64,000 nt of DNA from Marinovum algicola. GTDB lineage: Bacteria; Pseudomonadota; Alphaproteobacteria; Rhodobacterales; Rhodobacteraceae. Within the stretch, counting starts at the first letter, position 1. Every line of letters starts with the position of its first letter. The notes beneath the pieces were generated by a model. That model saw nothing but the letters and a program-made list of their open reading frames with translations. It was not told the DNA's origin and searched no databases. Positions 48,959 through 62,425 of the stretch are shown piece after piece. The position numbers and the translations under genes are program-made. The stretch covers positions 1 through 64,000 of the forward strand of contig NZ_FNYY01000023.1 of NCBI RefSeq assembly GCF_900109145.1. Direction: 5' to 3'.

Positions 48959-50890
48959 TCAGTACAGCCCGTCGATCTCCAACGGGATCCGCTTGACCTT
49001 GCGCGATTTCAAGAGATTGCGCGGCAGCTCGTCGGCATCGGCCTTGCGCAGCCGTTGATAACGCTTCTGCGCCACGTCTTTCATCTTGTATTCGCTGTCG
49101 ATCACCGTCGGCCGCATGAAGACAAACAGCGTGCGGCGGGTCTGCTGACGGTTCTTCGACCGGAACAGACGCCCCACCAGCGGCGCATCCCCCAGCCCCG
49201 GCACCTTGCTGTCGAGCGCCTGGCTGTCATCGGTGATCAACCCGCCCAACACCACCGTGCCGCCATCGCGGGCCTGCACCGTGGTTTCGATCACCCGGCG
49301 GTTGGTGATCAGATCGGCGGCGCCCTGCACGTTGGTATTGACCAGCGACGACACCTCCTGGGTGATGTCCAGCCGGACAACCCCGCCGGCGGTGACCCGC
49401 GGCAGCACCTCCATGGTGATGCCGACATCGCGGCGTTCGATGGTGGTGAAGGGTTCGGCGGTATTGCCGTCGGTGGCGAAAGAGCCGGTGCGGAACGGCA
49501 CGTTCTGCCCCACCACGATCGAGGCGGCGCGGTTGTCCATCGTGGTGATCGACGGCGTCGACAGCAGGTTGGCGCGCGAGGATTGCGACAGCGCCTGCAC
49601 CAGGATGCCGAAATCATCGACCGTGCCGGCCAGCGTCAGGCCAGAGGCCAGCGCCCCGGCCGGCGCCACGCCAAGCGCGGTCAACACCGCCGAAAGCGGC
49701 GCACCGCCGCTGTCGAAGGAGGTGCTGGCAAAGACCCCCTGCGGCAGATCCGGCCCGATGCCAAGCTGGGTGCCGATCCGGTCGGCGACCTCGCCCGAGA
49801 CCTCGACGATTGCCGCCTCGATCACCACCTGCGCCCGCCGCTTGTCGAGCGCGTCGACGAGTTGCGTCACCTCGGCAACCTGGCGTTCCGTGCCGCGGAT
49901 CACCACCGCGTTGGTTTCCGGCGAGGGCTGCACCGAAACCTCGGTCACCGCCCCGGGCTGCACCGGCGCGCCCGAGGCCTCGGCATCGGCCACCGGATTG
50001 GCCAGATCGGCGCCGCCGCGTATCGTGTTGGCGACGATCTCGGCCACAGCTTCGGCATCGGCGAATTTCAACTGATAGATATGGGTGCGCAGCACCTCTT
50101 GCGGGCTCGAACGCGGCGCCCGGTCAAGGCTCTCGGCCAGCAGCCGGATTTCGGTGAGTTCGGCATCGCTGCCGCGCACCAGAAGCGCATTGGCCTGCGG
50201 ATCGACCGAGATCCGCGCACCGGTGCCGGCCGAACCAAGCACTTCGGTGATCGCCGTCGCCACCGTCGCGGCCTCGGCAAAGGTAAAGCGAACCACCTCG
50301 GTCTTGAGGCTCTCGGGGCTGTCGAAGGTGGCGGCGATGGCGGCGATCCGGTCGACATTGGCACGGGCGTCGGACACGATGATCGCATTCGGATCGCTCA
50401 GCGCCTCGATATAGCCGCTCTCGGCCACAAGCGGCCGCAGCACCCGCACCGCCTCTTCCGAGGGCAGACGGTCGAGCGGCAGCAGCCGGGTCACCACATC
50501 CTGCGAACCGGCTTCGTTGGCGCCGCTCAGCGTGCCGCCTTTGGCGCGGGCCTCGGCCTCGGGGATCACTTCCCAGATGACGCCGCTTTCGACGGCAGTA
50601 AAGCCGCGCACCCGCAGGATCGACTGAAACAGCGCCCAGACCCCGGCCCGGGTCAGCGGTTCGGCCGAGACCACGGTGACCGGCCCCTGAAGCCCCGGAT
50701 CGATGACCAGGGTGCGGCCGGTGATCTCGGAGACCTGTTCGGCAAGCACGGTGATCTCGGTATTGCGAAGGTTGACGACGAAGGTCTCGCCATCGTCCTC
50801 CTGGGCCATCAGCGGCCCGCCGGCGAGCAGCGCCACGACCAAGGTCGAGACAAGCGCCACCGCGTAAAAAACCTGCCAGACTGCCCGCAT
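48959..50890 (-). CDS. gspD: Type II secretion outer-membrane secretin
   Basis: 643 residues with a signal peptide (about 1-29, cut after LMA). N0 domain at about 33-115 (FVVNLRNTEITVLAEQVSEI), N1-N3 domains to about 370, then the secretin barrel (VVIEAAIVEVSGEVADRIGTQ near 365) and the signature VPGLGDAPLVGRLF near 580. It ends with a basic tail (KSRKVKRIPLEIDGLY), typical of the S-domain position but short. It forms the outer-membrane channel. Last gene of the gspG-H-I-C-D operon. No pilotin of the GspS type is seen nearby. Confidence 0.95.
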   Translation of the reverse strand: MRAVWQVFYAVALVSTLVVALLAGGPLMAQEDDGETFVVNLRNTEITVLAEQVSEITGRTLVIDPGLQGPVTVVSAEPLTRAGVWALFQSILRVRGFTAVESGVIWEVIPEAEARAKGGTLSGANEAGSQDVVTRLLPLDRLPSEEAVRVLRPLVAESGYIEALSDPNAIIVSDARANVDRIAAIAATFDSPESLKTEVVRFTFAEAATVATAITEVLGSAGTGARISVDPQANALLVRGSDAELTEIRLLAESLDRAPRSSPQEVLRTHIYQLKFADAEAVAEIVANTIRGGADLANPVADAEASGAPVQPGAVTEVSVQPSPETNAVVIRGTERQVAEVTQLVDALDKRRAQVVIEAAIVEVSGEVADRIGTQLGIGPDLPQGVFASTSFDSGGAPLSAVLTALGVAPAGALASGLTLAGTVDDFGILVQALSQSSRANLLSTPSITTMDNRAASIVVGQNVPFRTGSFATDGNTAEPFTTIERRDVGITMEVLPRVTAGGVVRLDITQEVSSLVNTNVQGAADLITNRRVIETTVQARDGGTVVLGGLITDDSQALDSKVPGLGDAPLVGRLFRSKNRQQTRRTLFVFMRPTVIDSEYKMKDVAQKRYQRLRKADADELPRNLLKSRKVKRIPLEIDGLY

Positions 50891-50899
50891 TGCCTTCCC

Positions 50900-51808
50900 T
50901 TATCTCAGCGAGAAGGTCATCAGCAGCGTTTCTCCTGAACGCTCGACTTCCAACCGTGCCACTCCCGCCGCTGCTACTTGGTCATAAAGTTGGCGGTCTT
51001 TGTCAATGTTACCGACCGCTTGACCGTTAAGCCGCGTGACAATGTCACCCGGTTGCAACCCTGCCAGCGTCACCCCGATGTCGGGATCGGGCTTGATGCG
51101 ATAGCCGCGGTCGGTGCGTTCGACGCCGATGGTCTCCATCACCTCGGCCGGGTCGCGCTGAATGCGGCCGCGCCACTTGTCGATGTAATCGTCGATGGTT
51201 TCCGGCGGCGGCGCCTCGCGCAGATCGAGCGAGCCGCGCCCGGCGGTCAGCGAGGCGGCCAGCCGCGCCAGCGGATCGTTCGGCGCCTCGGCAACCTCGG
51301 TGACATCGGCCGTCGGCGGGGCGGTCTGGCCGGCGATCAGGTCGTCGCGGATAAAACCGTCGAATCCCAGCTCGTGCTCGGTGCCGTCTATCTTGAGAAT
51401 CACCGAAGCCGCCAGCACGTCGGTCAGCACAACGTCGTCTTCGACGCTCTCGCCGATGCGATAGGCATTGGTGTCGGTGCCATCGTAGATAAAGGCCCGC
51501 GACACCGCCTTGTCGGCATAGGCGAGGATGCCGCGCAGGGCGAAGTTCACCTTGGTCGGCGCCGGTTTCGCCGGGGCGTCGCTCTCGGCCACCACCCGGT
51601 CGGGCCGGCCAAAGGGGGCAAAGGCGAGGATCGCGCCGATATCGGGCGCCACCGCAGAGCCGGTGTCGAGCGGGCGCAGGATATCCGCCGGCAGGGTCGA
51701 GACCCGCGCAAGGCGCAGCCAGCCGCGCTCGTTGGCTTGCCAGCCCAGGCTGGCCAGGGCGGCGGCAAAGACAAGGGCGGTCATGGCCCAGAGCTGTCTT
51801 GCGGTCAT
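50900..51808 (-). CDS. gspC: Type II secretion protein C
   Basis: 302 residues, inner-membrane anchored: span at about 7-24 (WAMTALVFAAALASLGW), a homology region near 95-155 (FALRGILAYADKAVSRAFIYD), and a C-terminal PDZ domain (IGVTLAGLQPGDIVTRLNGQAVG near 250). GspC links the inner platform to GspD and binds cargo. It lies 9 nt before gspD and 13 nt after gspI in the transcription direction. Confidence 0.88.
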   Translation of the reverse strand: MTARQLWAMTALVFAAALASLGWQANERGWLRLARVSTLPADILRPLDTGSAVAPDIGAILAFAPFGRPDRVVAESDAPAKPAPTKVNFALRGILAYADKAVSRAFIYDGTDTNAYRIGESVEDDVVLTDVLAASVILKIDGTEHELGFDGFIRDDLIAGQTAPPTADVTEVAEAPNDPLARLAASLTAGRGSLDLREAPPPETIDDYIDKWRGRIQRDPAEVMETIGVERTDRGYRIKPDPDIGVTLAGLQPGDIVTRLNGQAVGNIDKDRQLYDQVAAAGVARLEVERSGETLLMTFSLR

Positions 51809-51821
51809 GTCGTTCCCTTTC

Positions 51822-52154
51822 CTACCAGGTATAGCCGCGCAGCACGACGCCGCCGCGCGCGCCCTCGACCGTCACGATCCGTTCGGTAAGGCCGGCGTCG
51901 GTCAATGTCCGCTCGGCCTCGGTCACCGCGGCCCGGCGGCCAAAGACCGCATCCCAGGCCGGCTGCACCTCGAGCCCGAGATGGCGCGCCGCCAGCCGGT
52001 TTTCGGCCACCCAGCGCAGGGTGACCCGGTCTTCCAGCCCGGCGATCCGGCCGGTGTGATCCTCGACCACCCCGAGAAGCGCCACCGCGCCGGTGGCCAG
52101 AACTGCCAGCGCAACCAGCGTCTCGATCAGGGTAAAGCCGTCGTCACGCCTCAT
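51822..52154 (-). CDS. gspI: Type II secretion minor pseudopilin I
   Basis: 110 residues. Prepilin leader MRRDDG then FTLIETLVALAVLATGA: cleavage after Gly6, Glu at mature position 5. The C-terminal half has a WVAENRLAA motif near 48, common in GspI. It overlaps gspH by 4 nt. Confidence 0.88.
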   Translation of the reverse strand: MRRDDGFTLIETLVALAVLATGAVALLGVVEDHTGRIAGLEDRVTLRWVAENRLAARHLGLEVQPAWDAVFGRRAAVTEAERTLTDAGLTERIVTVEGARGGVVLRGYTW

Positions 52155-52621
52155 GTGCCGGCCTCCAGCATTGCCGCGAAGCCATCAAACCGCAACACCG
52201 CCGGGGCGCCGCCACGCAGGGTCAGGCGCAGCGGCCCGTCCTCGGGGGGCAGCAGCTCCGGGGTGATGCTGAGCGTGCCCTCCCCCTCGAGCGAGACGCC
52301 GCCGGGAAAACCGTGCCGCGCCGCCAGCACCGGCGCCGGATGCGCCTGCCAGCCGTCATCCTCCCAGACCTCGAAAACGTAACCCGTCGGATCCCAGAGC
52401 ATCCGCACCGGCGCCAGCGTCTCGAGGCTGGCATCCACCGCCCGGGTCAGCCGCGCCTGCAACAGCCGCGCCTCGCGGGTGGCACCGGGCGCCTCGGTGC
52501 CCCGTGGGATCGCCAGCATCGCCGCCCCGACTGCCGTGCCGATGATCGCCAGCACCACCAGCGTCTCGATCAGGGTGACGCCCGCGTCGGGGCGGCGTGT
52601 CTGGGGGGCCGTCCGGGTCAT
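52151..52621 (-). CDS. gspH: Type II secretion minor pseudopilin H
   Basis: 156 residues. Leader ends RRPDAG, followed by VTLIETLVVLAIIGTAVG, with Glu5 kept; a Val replaces the usual Phe or Met at position +1. The beta-rich C-terminal part is GspH-like (REARLLQARLTRAVDASLE). It overlaps both gspG and gspI by 4 nt. Confidence 0.85.
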   Translation of the reverse strand: MTRTAPQTRRPDAGVTLIETLVVLAIIGTAVGAAMLAIPRGTEAPGATREARLLQARLTRAVDASLETLAPVRMLWDPTGYVFEVWEDDGWQAHPAPVLAARHGFPGGVSLEGEGTLSITPELLPPEDGPLRLTLRGGAPAVLRFDGFAAMLEAGT

Positions 52622-53103
52622 TTCGCGCTCACTTGCACTCCATGTGCGATATCCGCGTTCACGCCGTCGCCACCGGTCTGGCCATCGGCGCCGAGGCTGA
52701 TGAGATCGAAGGCCCCGGTTTCGCCCGGCGAACGATACAGGTAGTCGTTGCCCCAGGGATCGGCCGGCATCGCCGCCAGATATCCGCCCTGCGCCCAGTT
52801 CTGCGGCACCGGCGCCGCCGTCGGCCGCTCGACCAGCGCCGCCAGCCCCTGCGCGGTCGAAGGATAGACCCGGTTGTCGAGCCGATAGAGTTCCAGCGCG
52901 CTGGCGATCGAACGGATGTCGGTTTCGGCCACGGTGACCCGCGCCTCATCCGGGCGGCCAATGACATTGGGCACCACCATCGCGGCCACCACCGCGATAA
53001 TTACCAGCACGACCATCATCTCGATCAAGGTGACGCCGGCGTCGGACGCCCGGCCCGGGCGGCGCTTTGGTCTGCGGCGACGCATATTGAGCACTACAAA
53101 CAT
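52618..53103 (-). CDS. gspG: Type II secretion major pseudopilin G
   Basis: 161 residues. Leader up to Gly23 (RASDAG), then VTLIEMMVVLVIIAVVAAMV with Glu5. Family marks follow: LELYRLDNRVYPSTAQGLAALV near 78, DPWGNDYLYR near 117, and the calcium-loop region SLGADGQTGGDGVNADI at the end. It forms the main body of the secretion pseudopilus. ATG 53103 with GGGGAG upstream is used; the later ATG 53085 would give a shorter leader. First gene of the minus-strand operon, divergent from gspL. Confidence 0.93.
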   Translation of the reverse strand: MFVVLNMRRRRPKRRPGRASDAGVTLIEMMVVLVIIAVVAAMVVPNVIGRPDEARVTVAETDIRSIASALELYRLDNRVYPSTAQGLAALVERPTAAPVPQNWAQGGYLAAMPADPWGNDYLYRSPGETGAFDLISLGADGQTGGDGVNADIAHGVQVSAK

Positions 53104-53209: not shown

Positions 53210-54355
53210 ATGCTGGCTTCACAGGACGTTAATCCTGAAATCTCCGTCAATCCGGCGGCCGATGAAGTTATGCCTGCCGCCGCTGGCGGCTCCGGGATCG
53301 GCATTTCCCTGCCGCGCACCATCCTGCCGGACGCAATAATTTCAAAGCGATTGCACGGCAAAACTGCATTCGTAATTCCAGCACTCAGCGTCACGTTGCA
53401 TACGGTGCATTTGCCGGTGCGCGGACAGGCACAAAAGCTCGCGGCGTTGCCCTATGCGCTCGAGGAAGACATCGGCCGCCCCGAGGCCGAAATCCATCAC
53501 GCGCTCTGCGGGGCGTCTGCCGATGGCGCCATGCTGGCCGCGGCGGTGTCGCGCGAGGCAATGACGCTGGCCGTCGATGCCGCGGACGGCGCGCTGGTGA
53601 CACCGGAACATTTCCTGTTGCCGGTGCCGGCGCCCGCCGACGGCGAGGGCGGCAGCTGGATCGCCTGGCGCGAGGGCGATCTGGTGCTGGTGCGGGCCTC
53701 GGACGGCACCGGCTTTGGCGCCCGGGCCGACATGCTGGCGGCACTCTGGGCCGCTGCCGGCCGGCCGGTGATCGACAGCTATGGCGCCGCGCTGCCCGCC
53801 GGTCTTCCGGCGCGGCGCCGCAGCGCCGAGGATCTGCCGCCGCCGGGCCCCTTGCCCAATCTGCGCCAAGGCGATTTCGCCCCGCCGCAACGGCTGCGCG
53901 CGCCCGCCATCGCGCTGGCGCTTACCCTCCTGCTGGCGCTCGCCGGGCACCTCGGCCTCGCCTTTGCCGATCTTCAGCGCCAGCGCGCCACCGTCGAGAC
54001 CCTGCGCGCCGAGGCGTCCGAGCTTCTGGCCCGCAATGTCCCCGGCGCCCGCGTCACCGATGACCCCCGGCTGCTCTATCGCCGCCTGGCGGCAGGCGGG
54101 CAGGAGGCGCCCGGCTTTCTCGCCGTTCTGGCGCGGGCGTCAGAGGCACTGGCGGCGACGCCGGTGCAGCTCTCCAATCTCAACTGGTCGGGTCGCGACG
54201 CAGCGCTCACCCTCGAGGCCGAGGCCCAGGGAATCGACGTGTTGCAGGCCGCCGAAGCCGCCCTGCGCGCCGCCGCTCTCGATGTGGCTGCCGGGGCCGT
54301 CACCGCCGGCGGCGGCAGCGCCCGCATGACCCTGACCGTGAGGAGCGCACAATGA
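53210..54355 (+). CDS. gspL: Type II secretion protein L
   Basis: 381 residues. The N-terminal cytoplasmic ASKHA-like domain (about 55-220; LPYALEEDIGRPEAEIHHAL, then FGARADMLAALWAAAGRPVID) contacts GspE. A proline-rich linker follows, then one span (about 236-256, PAIALALTLLLALAGHLGLAF), then a periplasmic ferredoxin-like domain. The first 45 residues before LHGKTAFVIP are unlike GspL, so a later start is possible. Overlaps gspM by 4 nt. Confidence 0.85.
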   Translation: MLASQDVNPEISVNPAADEVMPAAAGGSGIGISLPRTILPDAIISKRLHGKTAFVIPALSVTLHTVHLPVRGQAQKLAALPYALEEDIGRPEAEIHHALCGASADGAMLAAAVSREAMTLAVDAADGALVTPEHFLLPVPAPADGEGGSWIAWREGDLVLVRASDGTGFGARADMLAALWAAAGRPVIDSYGAALPAGLPARRRSAEDLPPPGPLPNLRQGDFAPPQRLRAPAIALALTLLLALAGHLGLAFADLQRQRATVETLRAEASELLARNVPGARVTDDPRLLYRRLAAGGQEAPGFLAVLARASEALAATPVQLSNLNWSGRDAALTLEAEAQGIDVLQAAEAALRAAALDVAAGAVTAGGGSARMTLTVRSAQ

Positions 54356-54810
54356 TCTCCGCTTTCGCTTCGCTCTCGCGCCGCGAACGGCTGCTGATCG
54401 GACTGGCCGCGGTCGTGCTGCCGGCGGCCTTGATCTGGCAAATGCTGTGGAAACCGCTCGAGGCCGAACGCGCCGCCACCGCGGCCGAGATTGCCCGCCT
54501 CGACGCGCTGATCCATGTCGCCGCTCAGGCAAATACCACCGCCAGCCAGGACAGCGCCCCGGTCGATACGCGCCCGCCCAGCCAGCGCATCACCCAGAGT
54601 GCCGCCGCCGCCGGCATCGCCCTCACCCGGCTGGAACCGGAGGGCCGGCAATTCCGCGTCGCGGTATCGGAGCTGCAATTCGACGATGCGCTGCAATGGA
54701 TTGCCGCCCTGCGCGACGAGCACGGGTTGAAGGTGGCCGAGCTTGACATGGCTCGCCGCCTGACCCCCGGCGCCGTAACCCTGACCCTTGCGCTGGAGCC
54801 GCTGCAATGA
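54352..54810 (+). CDS. gspM: Type II secretion protein M
   Basis: 152 residues: span at about 15-30 (LLIGLAAVVLPAALIW) after SLSRRERL, a short coiled segment, then a periplasmic ferredoxin-like domain (RPPSQRITQSAAAAGIALTRLE). Partners GspL. Overlaps gspL and gspE by 4 nt each. Confidence 0.83.
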   Translation: MISAFASLSRRERLLIGLAAVVLPAALIWQMLWKPLEAERAATAAEIARLDALIHVAAQANTTASQDSAPVDTRPPSQRITQSAAAAGIALTRLEPEGRQFRVAVSELQFDDALQWIAALRDEHGLKVAELDMARRLTPGAVTLTLALEPLQ

Positions 54811-56273
54811 CCGCCCGCCTCGATTATGGCTTTGCCCGCCGCCACGGCGTGATCCTGCTGGACACCGACGACGGCGCGCCGGAATGCGCCCATCTCGCCA
54901 AGGCGCCGCTCTCGGCACTGCTCGAGGCGCAGCGCTGTGCCAACCGCGCCATCGCCTTTCGCCAGATCGACGCCACCGCCTTCGATACTGCGCTCTCGGG
55001 GCTCTACAGCAATTCCGCCACCCAGGCGGCGCAGATCGCCGCCGAGGATGACACCGATCTGACCGCGCTGGCCGAGACTGCCGCCTCGGTCGACGATCTG
55101 CTCGATCAGAAGGACGATGCCCCGGTGGTGCGGCTGATCAATGCGCTGCTGCTCGAAGCGGTCAAGGAAAACGCCTCTGACGTGCATATCGAGCTGGAAG
55201 AAACCCGCCTCGTGGTCCGGCTGCGGATCGACGGCACCCTGCGCGAGGTTCTGGAGCCGCGCCGCGCGCTGGCGCCGCTCTTGACCAGCCGGCTCAAGAT
55301 CATGGGCAAGCTCGACATCGCCGAAAAGCGCCTGCCGCAGGATGGCCGGGTGTCGCTCAAGGTTGGCGGCTATGCGCTTGACGTGCGGATCTCGACCCTG
55401 CCGTCGCAATATGGCGAACGCGTGGTGCTGCGACTGCTGGACCGGGGCCAGACCCGGCTGGGCATTCCGGCGCTGGGGCTGTCCGAGGATGACCGGGCGC
55501 GCTTCGAACGGATGCTTTCTTCGCCCGAGGGGCTGGTGCTGGTGACCGGGCCGACCGGTTCGGGCAAGACCACGACGCTTTATGCCGCGCTCTCGCATCT
55601 CAACGACCGGGCGCGCAATATTCTGACGGTCGAGGATCCGATCGAATATGCCATGGACGGGGTCGGCCAGATGCAGGTCGAGGCCAAGACCGGGCTGACC
55701 TTTGCCCGCGGGCTGCGGGCCCTGCTGCGGCAGGATCCCGATGTCATCATGGTGGGCGAGATCCGCGATGCCGAAACCGCCAAGATCGCGGTGGAATCGG
55801 CAATGACCGGCCACCTCGTCCTGTCGACCCTGCACACCAACACCGCCGTCGGCGCGGTCTCGCGGCTGCTCGACATGGGGGTCGAACGCTATCTGCTGGC
55901 GCCGATGCTGCGCGGGCTGGTGGCGCAGCGGCTGGTGCGCCGGCTCTGCCCCGACTGCCGCGAACCGCACCCGCTCAGCGCCCGTGATGCGGCACTGCTG
56001 GGCCATGCGATGCGGGAAGGCGCGCCGGCCTATCACGCGCCGGGATGTGACGCCTGTTCGCAAGAGGGCTATCGCGGCCGGCTGCCGATCTACGAGGTGG
56101 TCGAAGGCACCACGACCCTGGAGCAGATGATCCACGATGGCGCCTCGGAGGCCGATCTGATCGCCGAGGCCCGCCGCGCCAGCACCAGCATCCTCGACGA
56201 CGGCATCGCCAAGATCAAAGCCGGGCTGACCAGCGCCGAAGACGTCGCCCGCGCCGTGCGGGACAGGGTCTGA
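54807..56273 (+). CDS. gspE: Type II secretion ATPase E
   Basis: 488 residues, cytoplasmic hexameric ATPase driving pseudopilus growth. Short N-terminal domain (about 1-95), N2E (about 105-220: DAPVVRLINALLLEAVKENA), Walker A GPTGSGKT at 248-255, Asp box, Walker B PDVIMVGEIRDAE near 312, His box STLHTN near 340, and a four-cysteine zinc module (CPDC near 390, CDAC near 420). It overlaps gspM; gspF follows after 3 nt. Confidence 0.96.
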   Translation: MTARLDYGFARRHGVILLDTDDGAPECAHLAKAPLSALLEAQRCANRAIAFRQIDATAFDTALSGLYSNSATQAAQIAAEDDTDLTALAETAASVDDLLDQKDDAPVVRLINALLLEAVKENASDVHIELEETRLVVRLRIDGTLREVLEPRRALAPLLTSRLKIMGKLDIAEKRLPQDGRVSLKVGGYALDVRISTLPSQYGERVVLRLLDRGQTRLGIPALGLSEDDRARFERMLSSPEGLVLVTGPTGSGKTTTLYAALSHLNDRARNILTVEDPIEYAMDGVGQMQVEAKTGLTFARGLRALLRQDPDVIMVGEIRDAETAKIAVESAMTGHLVLSTLHTNTAVGAVSRLLDMGVERYLLAPMLRGLVAQRLVRRLCPDCREPHPLSARDAALLGHAMREGAPAYHAPGCDACSQEGYRGRLPIYEVVEGTTTLEQMIHDGASEADLIAEARRASTSILDDGIAKIKAGLTSAEDVARAVRDRV

Positions 56274-56276
56274 CCG

Positions 56277-57485
56277 ATGTCGGCCTTTCTCTATACCGCC
56301 GTCGACCAGGCCGGCAAACGTTCCAAGGGCCTGCTGGACGCCGCCAGCGCCGCCGAGGCCCGCGCCCAGTTGCGCGCCCGCGCCCTGCTGCCGCTCAGCG
56401 TCGAGGCGACGCGGGCGCGCGCCGGTGTCAGGACCTCGCTGTTTCGCCACAAGCTGTCGCTGCGCCGGCTGACGCTGATCACCCGGCAACTCGCCACGCT
56501 GATCGGCGCCTCAGTGCGGATCGACGATGCGCTGCGCATCACCGCAGACCAGCAGGTCAAGCCGCGCGACGCCTCGTTCCTTCTGAACCTGCGCAGCGCG
56601 GTGCAGGACGGTCAGAGCCTGGCCGATGCGCTGGATGCCGAACCGGCCAGTTTCAGCCCGGCGTACCGCGCCTCGGTGCGCGCGGGCGAACGTGCCGGGC
56701 GGCTGTCGGACGTGATGAACCAGCTCGCCGATCATATCGAGGCGCAATCGCGCAATCGCCAGAGCATCCAGCTGGCGCTGATCTATCCGGCGCTGCTGGC
56801 GGTGGTCTCGATCGGGGTGATCCTGGCGCTTCTGGGCTTCGTGGTGCCCGATATCGTGCGGGTCTTTACCGCCCGCGGCGCCGATCTTCCGGCGCTCACC
56901 CGCTCTCTGATCGCCCTGTCCGAAGGATTGCAACGGTTCGGCCCGATGATCGCCGCCATCGCCCTGCCGCTTGTTCTGGGCACGCTGGCGCTGCTGCGCC
57001 GGCCAGGGCCGCGCGCTGCCTGGCACCGGCTTTTGGCCACCGGGCGCCTGACCCGACGGCTGGTGCAGCGGGTCAATGCGGCGCAGTTCACCGGCACCCT
57101 GGCGATGCTGTTGCAAAGCGGCGTGCCGCTGGCCGATGCGCTGCGCGCCGCCGCCGGCACGGTGTCGAACCTGCATTTGCGCGCCCGCATCGCCACCATG
57201 ACCCGCGAGATCGAGGATGGCGCCGCGCTCTCTTCGGCGGCAAAACGCGCCGGCATCTTCTCGCCCATGTTGATTGCGATGATTGCCAGCGGCGAGGCCG
57301 GCGGTACGTTGGGAGCGAGCCTCGACCGCGCCGCCAGCGATCAGGCGCGCGAGCTCAAGGCCTCGGTGGCGACGCTGGTGGCGCTGGTCGAACCCGGCGT
57401 GCTGCTGGTGATGGGCGGCATCGTGATGCTGCTGGTGTTGGCCATCCTGATGCCGATCATGCAGCTCAATTCGCTGGTCGGATGA
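56277..57485 (+). CDS. gspF: Type II secretion inner-membrane platform protein F
   Basis: 402 residues. Two repeated cytoplasmic GspF domains (SLRRLTLITRQLATLIGASV near 60; NAAQFTGTLAMLLQSGVPLA near 265) with three spans (about 165-190, 215-235, 370-395). The motif FSPAYRASVRAGERAGRLSD is typical of the first domain, and FSPMLIAMIASGEAGG of the second. It is the membrane base on which GspE acts. Confidence 0.95.
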   Translation: MSAFLYTAVDQAGKRSKGLLDAASAAEARAQLRARALLPLSVEATRARAGVRTSLFRHKLSLRRLTLITRQLATLIGASVRIDDALRITADQQVKPRDASFLLNLRSAVQDGQSLADALDAEPASFSPAYRASVRAGERAGRLSDVMNQLADHIEAQSRNRQSIQLALIYPALLAVVSIGVILALLGFVVPDIVRVFTARGADLPALTRSLIALSEGLQRFGPMIAAIALPLVLGTLALLRRPGPRAAWHRLLATGRLTRRLVQRVNAAQFTGTLAMLLQSGVPLADALRAAAGTVSNLHLRARIATMTREIEDGAALSSAAKRAGIFSPMLIAMIASGEAGGTLGASLDRAASDQARELKASVATLVALVEPGVLLVMGGIVMLLVLAILMPIMQLNSLVG

Positions 57486-57550
57486 GGCCGCGCATGGCCC
57501 CGCCACCTTCGATCTGATAGCAAGGCCGCAACCCCTCAGGAAAATCCCGA

Positions 57551-58618
57551 ATGCCCGATCTCCTTCGCCCCTCCCGCCGCCGCTTCCTCGCCCTGACCAC
57601 AGGCTTTGCCGGGCTGGCGGGCTGTGCCTCGATCGACGGGCTGGGCGAAATCGGCGGCACCACCGAGGGCCCCGGCAAGGCCGCCATCCTGCTGCCGCTG
57701 ACCGGCGAACAGGCGCAGCTCGGCAAGCAGCTCGAGGCGGCGGTGCGGCTGGGGGGCGGCCCCGGCATCGGCATCGAAATCCGCGACAGTGGCTCGTCGC
57801 CCGATACCGCCGTCATCGCCGCCAAGGCCGCCGAGGCGGCCGGCGCCAACATCCTGATCGGCCCGGTATTCTCGGCCCAGACCAAGACGGTGGCCGCGGC
57901 TGTCAACATCCCGATCGTCACCCTGTCGAACGACACCACGCTGGCCGATCGCAACACCTTTGTCTTTGGCGTCACCCCGGCACAATCCGCCCGCGCGGTC
58001 TTTGCCCTCGCGGCACAGCGCAATATCCGCGAAATCGCCCTCGTCGCCCCGCCCGGCCCGCTCGGCGCCCGCAGCGCCGCCGAGGCGGTGCCGATCGCCC
58101 AGGCGCTCGGCATCACCCTACGTCCGCCGGTCATCACCGACACACCGGGCACGGTGCTGGCCGAACTGCAAGCCGGCGGCGGCCTGCCCGACGGCGTCTA
58201 CCTGCCTTCGGCCGGGGCCAGCCTGATCCCCTTCGCCGAAGCCCTGGCAGGTCAGGACACGCGGATCCTCGGCTCCACCCAATGGGCGGCCCGCGATCTC
58301 GAAGCGGTGCGCGCCCTGCGCGGCGCCTGGTTCGCCGCCCCCGATCCGCTGCGCTTCGCCGCCTTTACCCGCGCCTATGAAGAACAGACCGGCGAGCCCG
58401 CCGGCATCATCTCCGGGCTGGCCTATGACGGGGCCGAACTAATGCGGATATTGGGCCAGACCGGCAAGCAGACCCGACGGGGCCTGACCCGAAAGGAGAG
58501 TTTTACCGGTGTCCTCGGCCCCTATCGCTTCCTTAGCTCGGGTCTGGTCGAACGCGGCCTCGCGGTGCTCGAGGTGGGCGCAGGTGACATCAACCTGATC
58601 GGTTCCACCTCGATATGA
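57551..58618 (+). CDS. Periplasmic-binding-fold lipoprotein inside the secretion operon
   Basis: 355 residues. N terminus RRRF (9-12) then LAGC lipobox with Cys25: lipoprotein, and a possible Tat-like twin Arg. The body is Peripla_BP_6 / LpoA-like (AILLPLTGEQAQLGKQL near 46-62; GPVFSAQTKTVAAAVNIPIV near 102). This resembles penicillin-binding-protein activators (LpoA-like), which lack transport partners. It sits 65 nt after gspF, and its stop overlaps the gspJ start by 4 nt, so it is translated with the secretion genes. Function is unknown: GspS/AspS-like pilotin role, peptidoglycan-synthesis activation for GspD passage, or cargo capture are all possible. Confidence 0.8.
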   Translation: MPDLLRPSRRRFLALTTGFAGLAGCASIDGLGEIGGTTEGPGKAAILLPLTGEQAQLGKQLEAAVRLGGGPGIGIEIRDSGSSPDTAVIAAKAAEAAGANILIGPVFSAQTKTVAAAVNIPIVTLSNDTTLADRNTFVFGVTPAQSARAVFALAAQRNIREIALVAPPGPLGARSAAEAVPIAQALGITLRPPVITDTPGTVLAELQAGGGLPDGVYLPSAGASLIPFAEALAGQDTRILGSTQWAARDLEAVRALRGAWFAAPDPLRFAAFTRAYEEQTGEPAGIISGLAYDGAELMRILGQTGKQTRRGLTRKESFTGVLGPYRFLSSGLVERGLAVLEVGAGDINLIGSTSI

Positions 58619-59145
58619 GGCCGCGCCCCGACGCCGGCATGACGCTGATCGAAATGCTCGTAGCGCTGGCGATTCTGTCGGTGATCGGCGTCGCCGGGTT
58701 GACCATGCTCGACACCACCCTGAACGTGCAGCGCCGCACCGAAGGCCGGCTTGACCGGATCGAGGAGATCGACCGCGCGCTGACCGTGCTGCGCCGCGAT
58801 CTGGCCACCGCTGCACCGGGCTTTGCCGTGCTGGACGAGGGCGGGCTGACTTTCCTGCGCGCCACGACCGACGCTCCGCTTTCACTGCGCATCGCGCTGG
58901 AAGAGGGCACGCTCACCCGACAGGTGCAGCGCGGCCCCGAAACCCCGCCGCAGCACCTTCTGACCGGCGTGCGCGAAGCCCGCTGGCGGCTGCTCGACGG
59001 CGCCCGCCGCTGGCAGACCGCCTGGCCGGAGCCCTCGGCCAGCCCGCGGGCGGCGGAACTCACGCTGCGGCTCGAACTCCCGCAGCGCGGCGAGGTGGCC
59101 GAAGTCACCCGGCTGTTTCCGATGCCGGCGGGGGCCACCCGATGA
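58615..59145 (+). CDS. gspJ: Type II secretion minor pseudopilin J
   Basis: 176 residues. Leader MRPRPDAG, then MTLIEMLVALAILSVIGVAG with Glu5. Family marks: DRIEEIDRALTVLRRDLA near 46 and a beta-rich C-terminal part. It overlaps the lipoprotein gene and gspK by 4 nt. Confidence 0.88.
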   Translation: MRPRPDAGMTLIEMLVALAILSVIGVAGLTMLDTTLNVQRRTEGRLDRIEEIDRALTVLRRDLATAAPGFAVLDEGGLTFLRATTDAPLSLRIALEEGTLTRQVQRGPETPPQHLLTGVREARWRLLDGARRWQTAWPEPSASPRAAELTLRLELPQRGEVAEVTRLFPMPAGATR

Positions 59146-59999
59146 GACGCGGCGAGGCAGGGGTCACCCTGGTCAATGTGCTGGTGGTGCTGGCAATCAC
59201 GTCGGGGCTGGTGGTGTTGCTGCTGCGCCAGCAGGAAGACGGCCAGGACATCGTCGCCCGCCACGCCGCGCTGGCGCAGGCCGAACAGATCGCGCTTGGC
59301 GCCGAGGCTTCGGTGCTGGCGGCGCTGCGTCGGGATCTCGACACCGGCCCGGAGGAGGATCACTTTGCCGAACCCTGGGCCGGCGTCATCCAGGAGGAGG
59401 TCGCGTTGCCGGAAGGACGGTTCTCGGTGAAGGTGCGCGACCGTCAGGCGAAATTCGATATCAATCTCCTCACCGCGCCGGCCGTCGGCCCGCAGACGCT
59501 GTTCCAGCGCCTCGCCACGCGGCTCGACATCGACGCCGCCGAAGCCCGGCGCATTGCCGAACTCGTGGCGCTGCTCGGCGCGGTCCGCGACCTCTCCGAT
59601 CTCGAAGCCCAGGGCATCGCGCCGGATACGCTGGCCCGGCTCGCGCCGCATGTCACCGCCCTGCCGGTGCCGTCGACGATCAACCTCAACACCGCCGATC
59701 CGCTGCTGATGGAGGTTCTGTTCCAGAACCCCGGGATCGCGTCGCAGTTGCTGTTCCGCCGCCGGTCGCAAGGCTTCGTGTCCCGCAAGATGCTGACCGA
59801 TCTTGGCGCGCTGCGGCCCGGGCTGACCGGTTTCGGCTCGCATGCCTGGGAGGTCGAGATCCTGGCCGAGAGCGGCGCCGCGCGGGTGCGGCTTCTGAGC
59901 CTGATCCAGCGGCGCAACGATCTCGAGGGCAAGGCGGTCGCGCTGATCTCGCGCCGGTTCGACGCGCCGTTGCCGACTGAGGCGCCGGCCGAACCATGA
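59142..59999 (+). CDS. gspK: Type II secretion pseudopilin tip protein K
   Basis: 285 residues. Leader MRRGEAG, then VTLVNVLVVLAITSGLVVLL: Asn stands in place of Glu at position 5, which is normal for GspK. SAM-like helical part (QTLFQRLATRLDIDAAEARRIAEL near 110) and the GspK mark INLNTADPLLMEVLF near 182. It should cap the pseudopilus with GspI and GspJ. Followed by a strong terminator. Confidence 0.9.
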   Translation: MRRGEAGVTLVNVLVVLAITSGLVVLLLRQQEDGQDIVARHAALAQAEQIALGAEASVLAALRRDLDTGPEEDHFAEPWAGVIQEEVALPEGRFSVKVRDRQAKFDINLLTAPAVGPQTLFQRLATRLDIDAAEARRIAELVALLGAVRDLSDLEAQGIAPDTLARLAPHVTALPVPSTINLNTADPLLMEVLFQNPGIASQLLFRRRSQGFVSRKMLTDLGALRPGLTGFGSHAWEVEILAESGAARVRLLSLIQRRNDLEGKAVALISRRFDAPLPTEAPAEP

Positions 60000-60003
60000 A
60001 AAA

Positions 60004-60027
60004 CCCCCCGCGCCGGGGCGCGGGGGG
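60004..60027. terminator. Bidirectional terminator between gspK and the small lipoprotein gene
   Basis: A perfect 11-bp stem CCCCCCGCGCC/GGCGCGGGGGG (2-nt loop) lies just after the gspK stop. On the minus strand it is followed by TTTTT, a standard intrinsic terminator for the DUF4331-lipoprotein transcript; it also ends the gsp operon. Confidence 0.85.
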
Positions 60028-60059
60028 TCTGGCCTGACGGATCAAGGGGGGCTGTTCCG

Positions 60060-60278
60060 TCAGGGATTGAAAGGCGTCTTCTTTGGCGTCAGCTTCAGAT
60101 TGACGCTTTGCGCATCAACAGGCGTGGAATTGCGGATCTGATTGAAGGCATCCACAAAGGCCTGTCCGAGGGTGGCAATGCCCCTGGGGCTGTCGCCGCC
60201 TCCGCCATCGCCTTCACAGGCGGCGAGAAGCAGCACGGCACCAAGCGCCACGCAGGTGAGTTTACGTCTCATCATCAC
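60060..60278 (-). CDS. Small lipoprotein
   Basis: 72 residues. Signal peptide MMMRRKLTCVALGAVLLLAAC with lipobox LAAC and Cys21, followed by a Gly-rich spacer (EGDGGGGDSPRG) and a ~45-residue body (LGQAFVDAFNQIRNSTPVDAQ). No Asp at +2, so outer-membrane sorting is likely. It is 9 nt after the DUF4331 gene, in the same direction, and ends at the bidirectional terminator. Unknown function; a partner of the DUF4331 protein or a pilotin for the adjacent secretin are candidates. Confidence 0.75.
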   Translation of the reverse strand: MMMRRKLTCVALGAVLLLAACEGDGGGGDSPRGIATLGQAFVDAFNQIRNSTPVDAQSVNLKLTPKKTPFNP

Positions 60279-60287
60279 TCACCCCGC

Positions 60288-61847
60288 TCAATTCTCGGCG
60301 CCGGGAAGCGGCGTGTTCAGATAGGGGAACACGGCCTGCATCTCGGTCGCGTCGATCGGCGCCCCGTCGATGAACGGCTCGTCACCCACCGGCGCATCCG
60401 ACGGCTGGCAATAGCCGAGGTTGACGAAATCGCTCGGCTGGTCTTCGACCGCACCGGCAACGCCCAGTTCGGCGCCCAGCGGCACATCGTGACACAGCGC
60501 ACCCATCGCCACGCGCAGCGCGACATCGACCACGTCATCACCCGGACGGCGACCATTGGGGAAGCCAGCAAGGTCTTCGGCCACAACGCCATAGGGGTGT
60601 TGCGCGCTCTGTGGTGTCGGCGGCACGGCGGTGTTCAGCCGCAGCATTTCCGACGCGGTTACCGTGGCTTGTTGGTTGAAGCCCGGCAGACCGGTGAGGA
60701 AGGTGGCGACAAGGTCATCGCGCGGAATGTTCGACGGTGCGATGTTGCTGGAAGCCCCCAGCGCCTGACGGAACAGGATATCGATCAGTGCCGGCAGCGT
60801 CGGGTTGGTCACGTAGACCGCCAGCGCGCCGTCCTGGGTGGGCTCTGCCGCGTTGAACAGATCCTTGTCAGGCAGACCGATGACAACTTCGTTGACCAGC
60901 GGGTTGGACAGCCGCGATTGCTGCACCCAGGCACCGCCATAGATCGAGGGATCTTCATAGGTCGGCGAGGGATCTTCGATCTCGGCCTGCGGCAGGCTCG
61001 AGGTGGTCCAGGCGCCGATCACGCCATTACCCGATCCGACCAGACAGTCGATCGGCACTTCCAATGCCAGCGAGGTGATGTTGAACCGGTCGACCAGATC
61101 GTCATTGGCGCGATCATTGGGGATCGAGCCTTCCAGCGGCACCATGTTCACCAGGTCGAAGATTTCGCCCAGGTTCACCGCAAAGGCCTCTTCGCGCTGG
61201 CCGGCAAAGGCACGACCGGGCGTGGCACAGCCGGGAATGTCGATGTCATAGACAAAGCTATTGGCATAGGCCTCGTAATCGGGAAAGGTCTTTTCGCCGA
61301 TGTAATCCAGCGGTTTGACAAAGGTGTCATTGCCGCCCGAGGTGATTGATCGGATGGTCCCGGAGCGGCGGTCGCCGGTGACGACGTTGAGCGAATACCG
61401 CTCCTGTTCGTTCACCGTGGCATCGCCGGCGCCGGACACCTGCCCCGCCGTCTTCAGCGGAATGGCGACATCGACATTGCCGATGGTCAGCGCGATACCG
61501 TTGCCGCCGGCGCCCAGCATGTTGTCGAAATCGAACTGGAACGTCAGATCTTCGACCGCATCACCATCATTGTCGACGTGGATCTCATAGATCGCATCCT
61601 CGTCCATGGTGAAATAGTTCGGGCCACCGTAAGGGGCCTGAAGCGGCTGATAGTTTGCGATAAAGGTCACATAGCCCTGCCGGCCGGGCTCGTAACTGCG
61701 AAACATGTAAAAATCAGTACCATCAACCTTGGGTGAATGCGTGATGGCGGGCGCTTCGCGGTGCGAGGCACCCATCGCGCCCGTGGCGGCGACCGCAAGA
61801 AGGCTGATTGCCACCCCCGTGCGGATCGTCATATTATTGCTCTTCAT
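60288..61847 (-). CDS. DUF4331 exported protein
   Basis: 519 residues with a Sec signal peptide (about 1-27, cut before SHREAPAITHSPKVDGTDF, the DUF4331 hallmark start). The domain spans the mature protein: YMFRSYEPGRQGYVTFIANYQP, TFQFDFDN, then FVGQR-like FAGQREEAFAVNLGE. It contains two Cys pairs that could form disulfides (CATPGR, CLVGSG; CHDVP, CQPSD). Asp-rich loops (DVDNDGD-like HVDNDGDAVED) suggest calcium binding. Function of the domain is not known. It lies between gspK and the prepilin peptidase, with a signal peptide, so it may be cargo of this type II system. ATG 61847 follows GGGAG. Confidence 0.88.
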   Translation of the reverse strand: MKSNNMTIRTGVAISLLAVAATGAMGASHREAPAITHSPKVDGTDFYMFRSYEPGRQGYVTFIANYQPLQAPYGGPNYFTMDEDAIYEIHVDNDGDAVEDLTFQFDFDNMLGAGGNGIALTIGNVDVAIPLKTAGQVSGAGDATVNEQERYSLNVVTGDRRSGTIRSITSGGNDTFVKPLDYIGEKTFPDYEAYANSFVYDIDIPGCATPGRAFAGQREEAFAVNLGEIFDLVNMVPLEGSIPNDRANDDLVDRFNITSLALEVPIDCLVGSGNGVIGAWTTSSLPQAEIEDPSPTYEDPSIYGGAWVQQSRLSNPLVNEVVIGLPDKDLFNAAEPTQDGALAVYVTNPTLPALIDILFRQALGASSNIAPSNIPRDDLVATFLTGLPGFNQQATVTASEMLRLNTAVPPTPQSAQHPYGVVAEDLAGFPNGRRPGDDVVDVALRVAMGALCHDVPLGAELGVAGAVEDQPSDFVNLGYCQPSDAPVGDEPFIDGAPIDATEMQAVFPYLNTPLPGAEN

Positions 61848-61978: not shown

Positions 61979-62425
61979 ATGCCGCCTGTTCTCGTCAGCC
62001 TGATTTCCGATGTCGTTTTGCTGATCTGCCTCGCCGCGCTCGCCTGGATCGATCTGCGCCAATTCCGTCTGCCCGATGCGCTGACCCTGCCGCTTGTGCT
62101 GCTCGGCCTCGGTCTGTCGCTCACCGGTCACGGGCCGGCGCCGCTGGATGCCGCAATCGGTGCGGCGGCAGGCTTTGCGGTGTTCTGGGCGCTTGGCGCG
62201 ACCTATTTCCGCCTGCGGAAGATCGACGGGCTGGGCCTCGGCGATGCCAAGCTGATGGCCGCCGCCGGCGCCTGGCTCGGTTGGCAGATGCTGCCGTGGC
62301 TGGTGCTGGGCGCCAGCCTTCCGGCGCTGGTCTTTGCCCTGGTCACAGGTCAGGGCCGCCATGACAGGATCGCTTTCGGGCTCTGGCTCTGCCTCAGTTT
62401 CGCGGTGCTGCGTCTCGCGACCTGA
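61979..62425 (+). CDS. gspO: Minimal prepilin peptidase (GspO-like, A24 family)
   Basis: 148 residues with four to five spans. It keeps both catalytic aspartates: WIDLRQFRLPD near 24 and GLGLGDAKLM near 83. It lacks the N-terminal methyltransferase and zinc Cys domain of full GspO/PilD (usually ~250-290 residues), so it is like the short CpaA/TadV peptidases. ATG 61979 is used. It likely cleaves the GspG-K pseudopilin leaders. It is divergent from the DUF4331 gene across 131 nt, which holds no gene. Confidence 0.85.
   Translation: MPPVLVSLISDVVLLICLAALAWIDLRQFRLPDALTLPLVLLGLGLSLTGHGPAPLDAAIGAAAGFAVFWALGATYFRLRKIDGLGLGDAKLMAAAGAWLGWQMLPWLVLGASLPALVFALVTGQGRHDRIAFGLWLCLSFAVLRLAT

What the first reader, a model, noticed from the sequence alone, without database searches (positions are those of the whole stretch)
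60060..61847. DUF4331 protein and small lipoprotein as candidate cargo and partner of the secretion system
An exported 519-residue DUF4331 protein (SHREAP start, Cys pairs, Asp-rich loops) and a 72-residue lipoprotein form a two-gene operon placed between gspK and the prepilin peptidase. Genes inside a type II locus are often its own cargo or assembly factors. The function of DUF4331 is unknown, so a dedicated one-cargo secretion system is possible.
Basis: inference. Interest (0 to 1): 0.65.

Follow-up and report, generated by a model that had tools for sequence, protein, structure and literature searches.

The report
Secretion-locus DUF4331 and small lipoprotein pair
In marine Rhodobacterales, one lineage of type II secretion machines always carries, inside its gene cluster, an exported protein of unknown function and a tiny lipoprotein; the exported protein is a good but unproven candidate for the machine's main cargo, and may be a metal-binding surface protein.

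Summary
In detail: a PF14224 (DUF4331) gene and a small lipoprotein gene form a two-gene unit between gspK and gspO of a complete type II secretion (T2SS) locus. The linkage is real and old, but limited to one lineage. In the window's family, all 8 genomes with a full or long DUF4331 gene carry it in the same T2SS cluster type (A). All 16 clusters of the other type (B) lack it, including the window genome's own second T2SS. Among 80 named loci, 25 are T2SS-linked, nearly all Rhodobacterales. Elsewhere DUF4331 sits in ECF-sigma/anti-sigma/lipoprotein/TPR/HupE operons away from gsp genes. Most of those genomes still encode a T2SS, some do not, and sphingomonads have type-A systems without DUF4331. 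'Cargo of this T2SS' is the best-supported reading (about 0.5); 'dedicated one-cargo system' and 'assembly factor' are not supported. The lipoprotein partners DUF4331 rather than the T2SS. In all 93 sequences the predicted signal-peptidase cut leaves [S/A]-S-His at the N-terminus, a potential Cu/Ni-binding (ATCUN) motif. The predicted fold has no convincing PDB match, and no paper in the searched library names the family. Secretion itself was not tested.

The parts
60288..61847 (-). DUF4331 (PF14224) protein, 519 aa, Sec signal peptide; predicted mature N-terminus A-S-H-R-E-A-P; four invariant Cys
   Evidence: Pfam E 5.4e-137; alignment of 59 relatives; AxA-type cut before X-S-H in 93/93 sequences; AlphaFold2 pLDDT 83, pTM 0.85
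60060..60278 (-). Small lipoprotein (70-72 aa), lipobox LLAAC, conserved ~40-residue C-terminal segment G..F...F.......P
   Evidence: translation; same-position small lipoproteins in relatives share G11, F14, F18, P26 in A4
60003..60019 (-). Intrinsic terminator-like hairpin ending the DUF4331-lipoprotein transcript
   Evidence: folded stretch 59996-60045: -28 kcal/mol, z -2.5
59142..59999 (+). gspK
   Evidence: NF037980 E 3e-35, slightly under its cut-off; Pfam T2SSK E 2.5e-4
58615..59145 (+). gspJ
   Evidence: Pfam T2SSJ over cut-off; TIGR01711 E 1e-16
57551..58618 (+). Periplasmic-binding-protein-fold lipoprotein, conserved in the type-A T2SS clusters
   Evidence: PF13458 E 2.4e-21; present in linked relatives at 37-56% identity
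56277..57485 (+). gspF
   Evidence: TIGR02120 E 1.8e-124
54807..56273 (+). gspE
   Evidence: TIGR02533 E 1.6e-184; tree of type A versus B
54352..54810 (+). gspM
   Evidence: PF04612 E 3e-29
53210..54355 (+). gspL
   Evidence: PF12693 E 2.4e-12, PF05134 E 2.9e-9
52618..53103 (-). gspG
   Evidence: TIGR01710 E 3.5e-51
52151..52621 (-). gspH
   Evidence: TIGR01708 E 3.7e-9, under cut-off; position
51822..52154 (-). gspI
   Evidence: TIGR01707 E 4.6e-12, over cut-off
50900..51808 (-). gspC
   Evidence: PF11356 E 2e-10
48959..50890 (-). gspD secretin
   Evidence: TIGR02517 E 1.2e-139, over cut-off
61979..62425 (+). gspO prepilin peptidase (A24); likely ATG start at 61979
   Evidence: PF01478 E 4.9e-24

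Best explanation
The DUF4331 protein is exported by Sec, probably folds in the periplasm with up to two disulfides, and is most likely a main cargo of the type-A T2SS whose cluster it sits in. [quoted passage not shown] Shown here: the two-gene unit; its inclusion in one T2SS lineage; pairing of DUF4331 with a small lipoprotein well beyond T2SS loci; and more T2SS in DUF4331 genomes than background. Inferred: passage through the secretin, disulfide formation, physical binding between the two proteins, and final location.
For: Family survey: 8/8 genomes with a full or long DUF4331 have it in the conserved order L-M-E-F-(PBP)-J-K-<lipoprotein-<DUF4331-O, or on the matching contig fragment. The 16 type-B T2SS clusters, including the own genome's second T2SS, lack it; Fisher p 1.4e-6, not corrected for shared ancestry. 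gspE tree: all 29 linked or fragment-split type-A tips form one group against 15 type-B tips. Bridging loci carry parts of the wider DUF4331 operon inside T2SS clusters: TPR and HupE in L122/L125, HupE in L099, anti-sigma and ECF in L110, ECF and ChrR-type cupin in L112. Co-occurrence: 16/16 genomes with full DUF4331 in a phylum sample have GspM against 226/398 background. In 25 linked loci DUF4331 is as conserved (66.8% mean identity) as GspE (66.1%) and GspG (66.7%).
Against: Linkage is nearly confined to Rhodobacterales; in most hyphomonads and in gammaproteobacteria DUF4331 is not within about 10 kb of gsp genes. Amylibacter cionae and a related MAG, a Hyphomonadaceae MAG, a Caulobacter MAG, an Asticcacaulis and a Saprospiraceae MAG have canonical DUF4331 but no T2SS-type GspM or GspD match. 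Sphingomonad type-A T2SS lack DUF4331. DUF4331 and GspE distances correlate less (r 0.61) than GspE with GspF (0.93) or GspG (0.81). A cautionary precedent exists: the Caulobacter lipoprotein ElpS is encoded next to a T2SS and released in a T2SS-dependent manner, yet reaches the surface without it (PMC2996285).
Confidence: 0.5

Rival explanations
1. DUF4331 and its lipoprotein form an independent envelope module, periplasmic or outer-membrane-bound without T2SS, that became fixed next to a T2SS in an ancestor of Rhodobacterales and stayed by inheritance or shared regulation.
For: The pair exists away from T2SS genes in hyphomonads and gammaproteobacteria, often beside ECF and RskA-type anti-sigma genes; it is a separate transcription unit here; a few genomes have DUF4331 without T2SS; co-inheritance with GspE is only moderate; ElpS shows that linkage can mislead (PMC2996285).
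Against: Linkage in 8/8 family genomes and across many genera at 54-70% DUF4331 identity is long to last by chance; further genes of the DUF4331 operon (TPR, HupE, ECF, anti-sigma) also lie in or beside T2SS clusters in several lineages; T2SS enrichment in genomes where the genes are unlinked.
Confidence: 0.3
2. The pair is an accessory or assembly factor of the machine, the lipoprotein being a pilotin-like partner of the secretin.
For: Position inside the cluster and a short lipoprotein with a conserved C-terminal segment.
Against: The lipoprotein follows DUF4331 into loci without gsp genes; sphingomonad type-A and all type-B systems lack the pair; some DUF4331 genomes have no T2SS.
Confidence: 0.1
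3. The lipoprotein is the substrate displayed by the T2SS (pullulanase-like) and DUF4331 is its periplasmic or co-secreted partner.
For: Lipoproteins can depend on a T2SS (ElpS release in Caulobacter, PMC2996285; pullulanase, own knowledge).
Against: The mature lipoprotein is only about 50 residues and Gly/Pro-rich before its conserved segment, unlike known folded T2SS substrates; DUF4331 is the larger and better conserved partner, and the Amylibacter-type loci keep DUF4331 without a recognised lipoprotein.
Confidence: 0.07

Closest known systems
DUF4331 family, PF14224
   Same: Full-length match, SHREAP start, four invariant Cys, NGRRPxDD segment
   Different: Here embedded in a T2SS cluster; most proteobacterial relatives outside Rhodobacterales lie in or near ECF/anti-sigma/lipoprotein/TPR/HupE operons
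T2SS with a substrate encoded at the locus (Hxc with LapA in Pseudomonas aeruginosa; Pul with pullulanase)
   Same: Exported protein encoded with its putative machine; a second, separate T2SS in the same genome
   Different: Secretion not shown here; the substrate family is uncharacterised and comes with a small lipoprotein. LapA as an Hxc effector is stated in PMC5646246; the rest is own knowledge
ElpS and the Caulobacter crescentus T2SS (PMC2996285)
   Same: Alphaproteobacterial T2SS with an adjacent conserved exported gene and a separately oriented gspO
   Different: ElpS is itself the lipoprotein, its neighbour is a TonB-dependent receptor, and its surface display is T2SS-independent

Membership tests
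DUF4331 (PF14224) | Whole-length profile match above the curated cut-off | tested here: met
   457.9 bits against cut-off 27, profile 2-421 of 421
DUF4331 (PF14224) | Known biochemical activity | not testable with these tools
   None described in the searched library: 0 papers with the family name or accession; no PDB relative by sequence
Type II secretion system | Core set C-M plus prepilin peptidase | tested here: met
   C, D, E, F, G, H, I, J, K, L, M and O found, some (E, F, H, J, K) under the NCBIfam cut-offs though clear by E-value and position; no gspN between gspF and gspJ, where relative L038 has one
T2SS substrate | Cleavable Sec (or Tat) signal peptide | tested here: met
   N-terminal hydrophobic signal and AxA-type site in 93/93 relatives by a rule-based check; no SignalP available
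T2SS substrate | Folded, often disulfide-bonded, in the periplasm before export | tested here: inconclusive
   Four invariant Cys and a confident fold, but Cys-Cys distances were not available
T2SS substrate | Extracellular or surface location lost in a gsp mutant | not testable with these tools
   Needs an experiment
T2SS substrate | Found only in genomes with a T2SS | tested here: inconclusive
   16/16 in the phylum sample have GspM; about 44 of 50 unlinked named genomes have T2SS GspM or GspD; six lack a T2SS-type match
Bacterial lipoprotein (60060-60278) | Signal peptide with lipobox ending in Cys | tested here: met
   LLAAC, by direct reading of the translation; equivalent lipoboxes in relatives
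Secretin pilotin | Match to a known pilotin family and linkage to the secretin | tested here: inconclusive
   No Pfam match and no meaningful NCBIfam match; it follows DUF4331 rather than gspD
ATCUN-type Cu/Ni site | Free N-terminus with His as third residue | tested here: inconclusive
   Predicted [S/A]-S-H in 93/93 by the AxA rule, and SSHMDAP in two distant relatives; cleavage and metal binding not tested

The most novel reading that the evidence does not exclude
DUF4331 is a T2SS-exported, surface or extracellular Cu/Ni(/Co)-binding protein. Its mature N-terminus [S/A]-S-His would form an amino-terminal Cu/Ni (ATCUN) site, the small lipoprotein would tether it to the outer membrane, and the HupE/UreJ-like membrane protein found in many DUF4331 operons would act in the same metal pathway. 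In Rhodobacterales one T2SS lineage would have specialised for it.
Probability: 0.15. Interest if true: 0.75.

Novelty: new variant of a known kind. Interest (0 to 1): 0.52.

Why it matters
It would give a testable role to a conserved family that no paper in the searched library mentions. It names a cargo candidate for a common T2SS lineage of marine Rhodobacterales, for which no cargo study turned up in the searches run. It also separates a DUF4331-lipoprotein partnership, much wider than T2SS loci, from the machine, so each can be tested separately.

Tried and rejected
Literature: no paper names DUF4331 or PF14224. Sequence search of solved structures: nothing. Fold search with the confident DUF4331 model: no Foldseek match under E 1e-3, and best VIA-align Z 6.7 (Sas6, 199 residues at 5.1 A), inside the range expected from unrelated folds, so no fold-based function is claimed and a new fold is not claimed either. 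Docking test: DUF4331 and the lipoprotein are in frame, so they were read through as one chain together with 22 natural tandems; the model was poor (mean pLDDT 51.5, lipoprotein tail mostly under 50) and says nothing for or against binding. Homology of the alphaproteobacterial lipoprotein tail with the larger gammaproteobacterial lipoprotein at the same place is not shown (hhalign probability 12%), so that is only positional equivalence. The first handle searches exceeded limits and were repeated smaller.

Full report
What is there. The window holds a complete T2SS locus. gspG, H, I, C and D run on the minus strand (53103-48959); gspL, M, E, F, a periplasmic-binding-protein-fold lipoprotein, gspJ and gspK run on the plus strand (53210-59999); gspO lies at 61979-62425. 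Between gspK and gspO, on the minus strand, lie DUF4331 (60288-61847; PF14224, E 5.4e-137) and a small lipoprotein (60060-60278). They are 9 bases apart and end at a hairpin with a T-tract. The pair is therefore convergent with gspK and divergent from gspO, a transcription unit of its own.

Linkage in the family. PF14224 was sought in 248 genomes of the window's family: 10 had matches, 8 of them full or long genes. GspM occurred in 24. In all 8 the DUF4331 gene sits in the same cluster order, or, where contigs are split, next to gspK and gspO. DUF4331 identity to the window is 54-70% for the full-length genes, higher than for most gsp products. The other T2SS clusters of the family, including the second T2SS of the window's own genome (contig C22), have a different order (O-G-H-I-J-K-L-M-C-D-E-F) and no DUF4331. 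Taking 8 type-A against 16 type-B clusters, Fisher p is 1.4e-6; shared ancestry inflates this. In a gspE tree the linked systems form one group, with the two apparent exceptions explained by contig ends (L043 has a truncated DUF4331; the L196 genome has it on another contig).

Beyond the family. Of 80 named loci, 25 have gsp genes beside DUF4331; they are Rhodobacterales-type or unnamed alphaproteobacterial records, plus a Hyphomonas MAG (L110). In most hyphomonads, in caulobacters and in gammaproteobacteria the pair is instead in or near operons with an ECF sigma factor, an RskA-type anti-sigma factor, a TPR protein and a HupE/UreJ_2 protein. Several T2SS-linked loci carry pieces of that operon: TPR and HupE directly between gspC and gspO in L122 (and the same order in L125), HupE beside gspO in L099, anti-sigma and ECF in L110, ECF and a ChrR-type cupin in L112. 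This suggests that T2SS and DUF4331 genes were brought together as parts of one function, though repeated local recombination cannot be excluded.

Genome-level test. In 398 genomes of the phylum, all 16 with a full-length DUF4331 also have GspM, against 226 overall (hypergeometric p 9e-5, not corrected for phylogeny). Among 50 named genomes where the genes are not linked, about 44 have a T2SS-type GspM or GspD; six do not, including Amylibacter cionae and an Asticcacaulis strain. The Amylibacter-type loci also lack a recognisable lipoprotein. Conversely, sphingomonad-type genomes G259 and G766 have type-A T2SS without DUF4331 beside it, and a Brevundimonas MAG has a type-A T2SS with DUF4331 on another contig. 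So neither partner strictly requires the other.

The lipoprotein. Small lipoproteins follow DUF4331 in most alphaproteobacterial and many gammaproteobacterial loci. In alphaproteobacteria, linked and unlinked forms share a C-terminal segment with invariant G, F, F and P. The gammaproteobacterial lipoprotein is usually longer and its tail is not demonstrably homologous. The partnership is therefore with DUF4331, not with the T2SS. Read-through modelling of the tandem was uninformative.

The DUF4331 protein. All four Cys are invariant in 59 relatives, as are many Asp, Arg and Gly positions. The AlphaFold2 model is confident (pLDDT 83, pTM 0.85), with a beta-rich first part (to about residue 313) and a mixed helical remainder, but no solved structure matches well. 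The segment around residues 20-38, which includes invariant SHREAP, has low confidence and may be flexible. In 93 of 93 relatives the AxA-type rule places the signal-peptidase cut before [S/A]-S-H. His would then be the third residue of the mature protein, which is the defining pattern of ATCUN copper/nickel sites (own knowledge). Two distant relatives keep SSH although the following residues change to MDAP. This is a lead, not a demonstration.

Judgement. The best-supported mechanism is that DUF4331 is exported by Sec and then by the type-A T2SS, with the lipoprotein as its own partner, at about 0.5. ElpS in Caulobacter (PMC2996285), linked to a T2SS and dependent on it only indirectly, is the reason not to go higher. 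A dedicated single-cargo machine is not supported, and an assembly role is unlikely.

Noticed in passing
window 57551-58618 (+): A periplasmic-binding-protein-fold lipoprotein (PF13458, weakly LppC-like) between gspF and gspJ, conserved in nearly all linked type-A clusters and in two type-A clusters without DUF4331; possibly an envelope or peptidoglycan factor of this T2SS type.
   Followed up: partly
window 57485-57551; L038:6153-7016 (-): The window has no gene between gspF and the PBP-type lipoprotein, whereas Palleronia (L038) has a gspN (PF01203, E 3e-7) there on the opposite strand; several other linked relatives have a gap of similar size.
   Followed up: partly
L097 (G000:C22:278000-297500): The window genome's second T2SS (type B) has a HupE/UreJ_2 gene next to gspO and a rhomboid protein that looks like a rhombosortase (own reading) between gspO and gspG.
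   Followed up: partly
L110, L117: Two alphaproteobacterial MAG loci with deep-branching type-A T2SS next to DUF4331 and pieces of its ECF/anti-sigma or TPR neighbourhood; useful for dating the association.
   Followed up: no
L150: A contig binned as Saprospiraceae carries two DUF4331 genes with a proteobacterial-type ECF/anti-sigma/HupE set; probably a binning error.
   Followed up: no
L121, L123, L124: Amylibacter/Neptunicoccus-type loci have canonical DUF4331 with neither gsp genes nor a recognisable lipoprotein nearby.
   Followed up: partly
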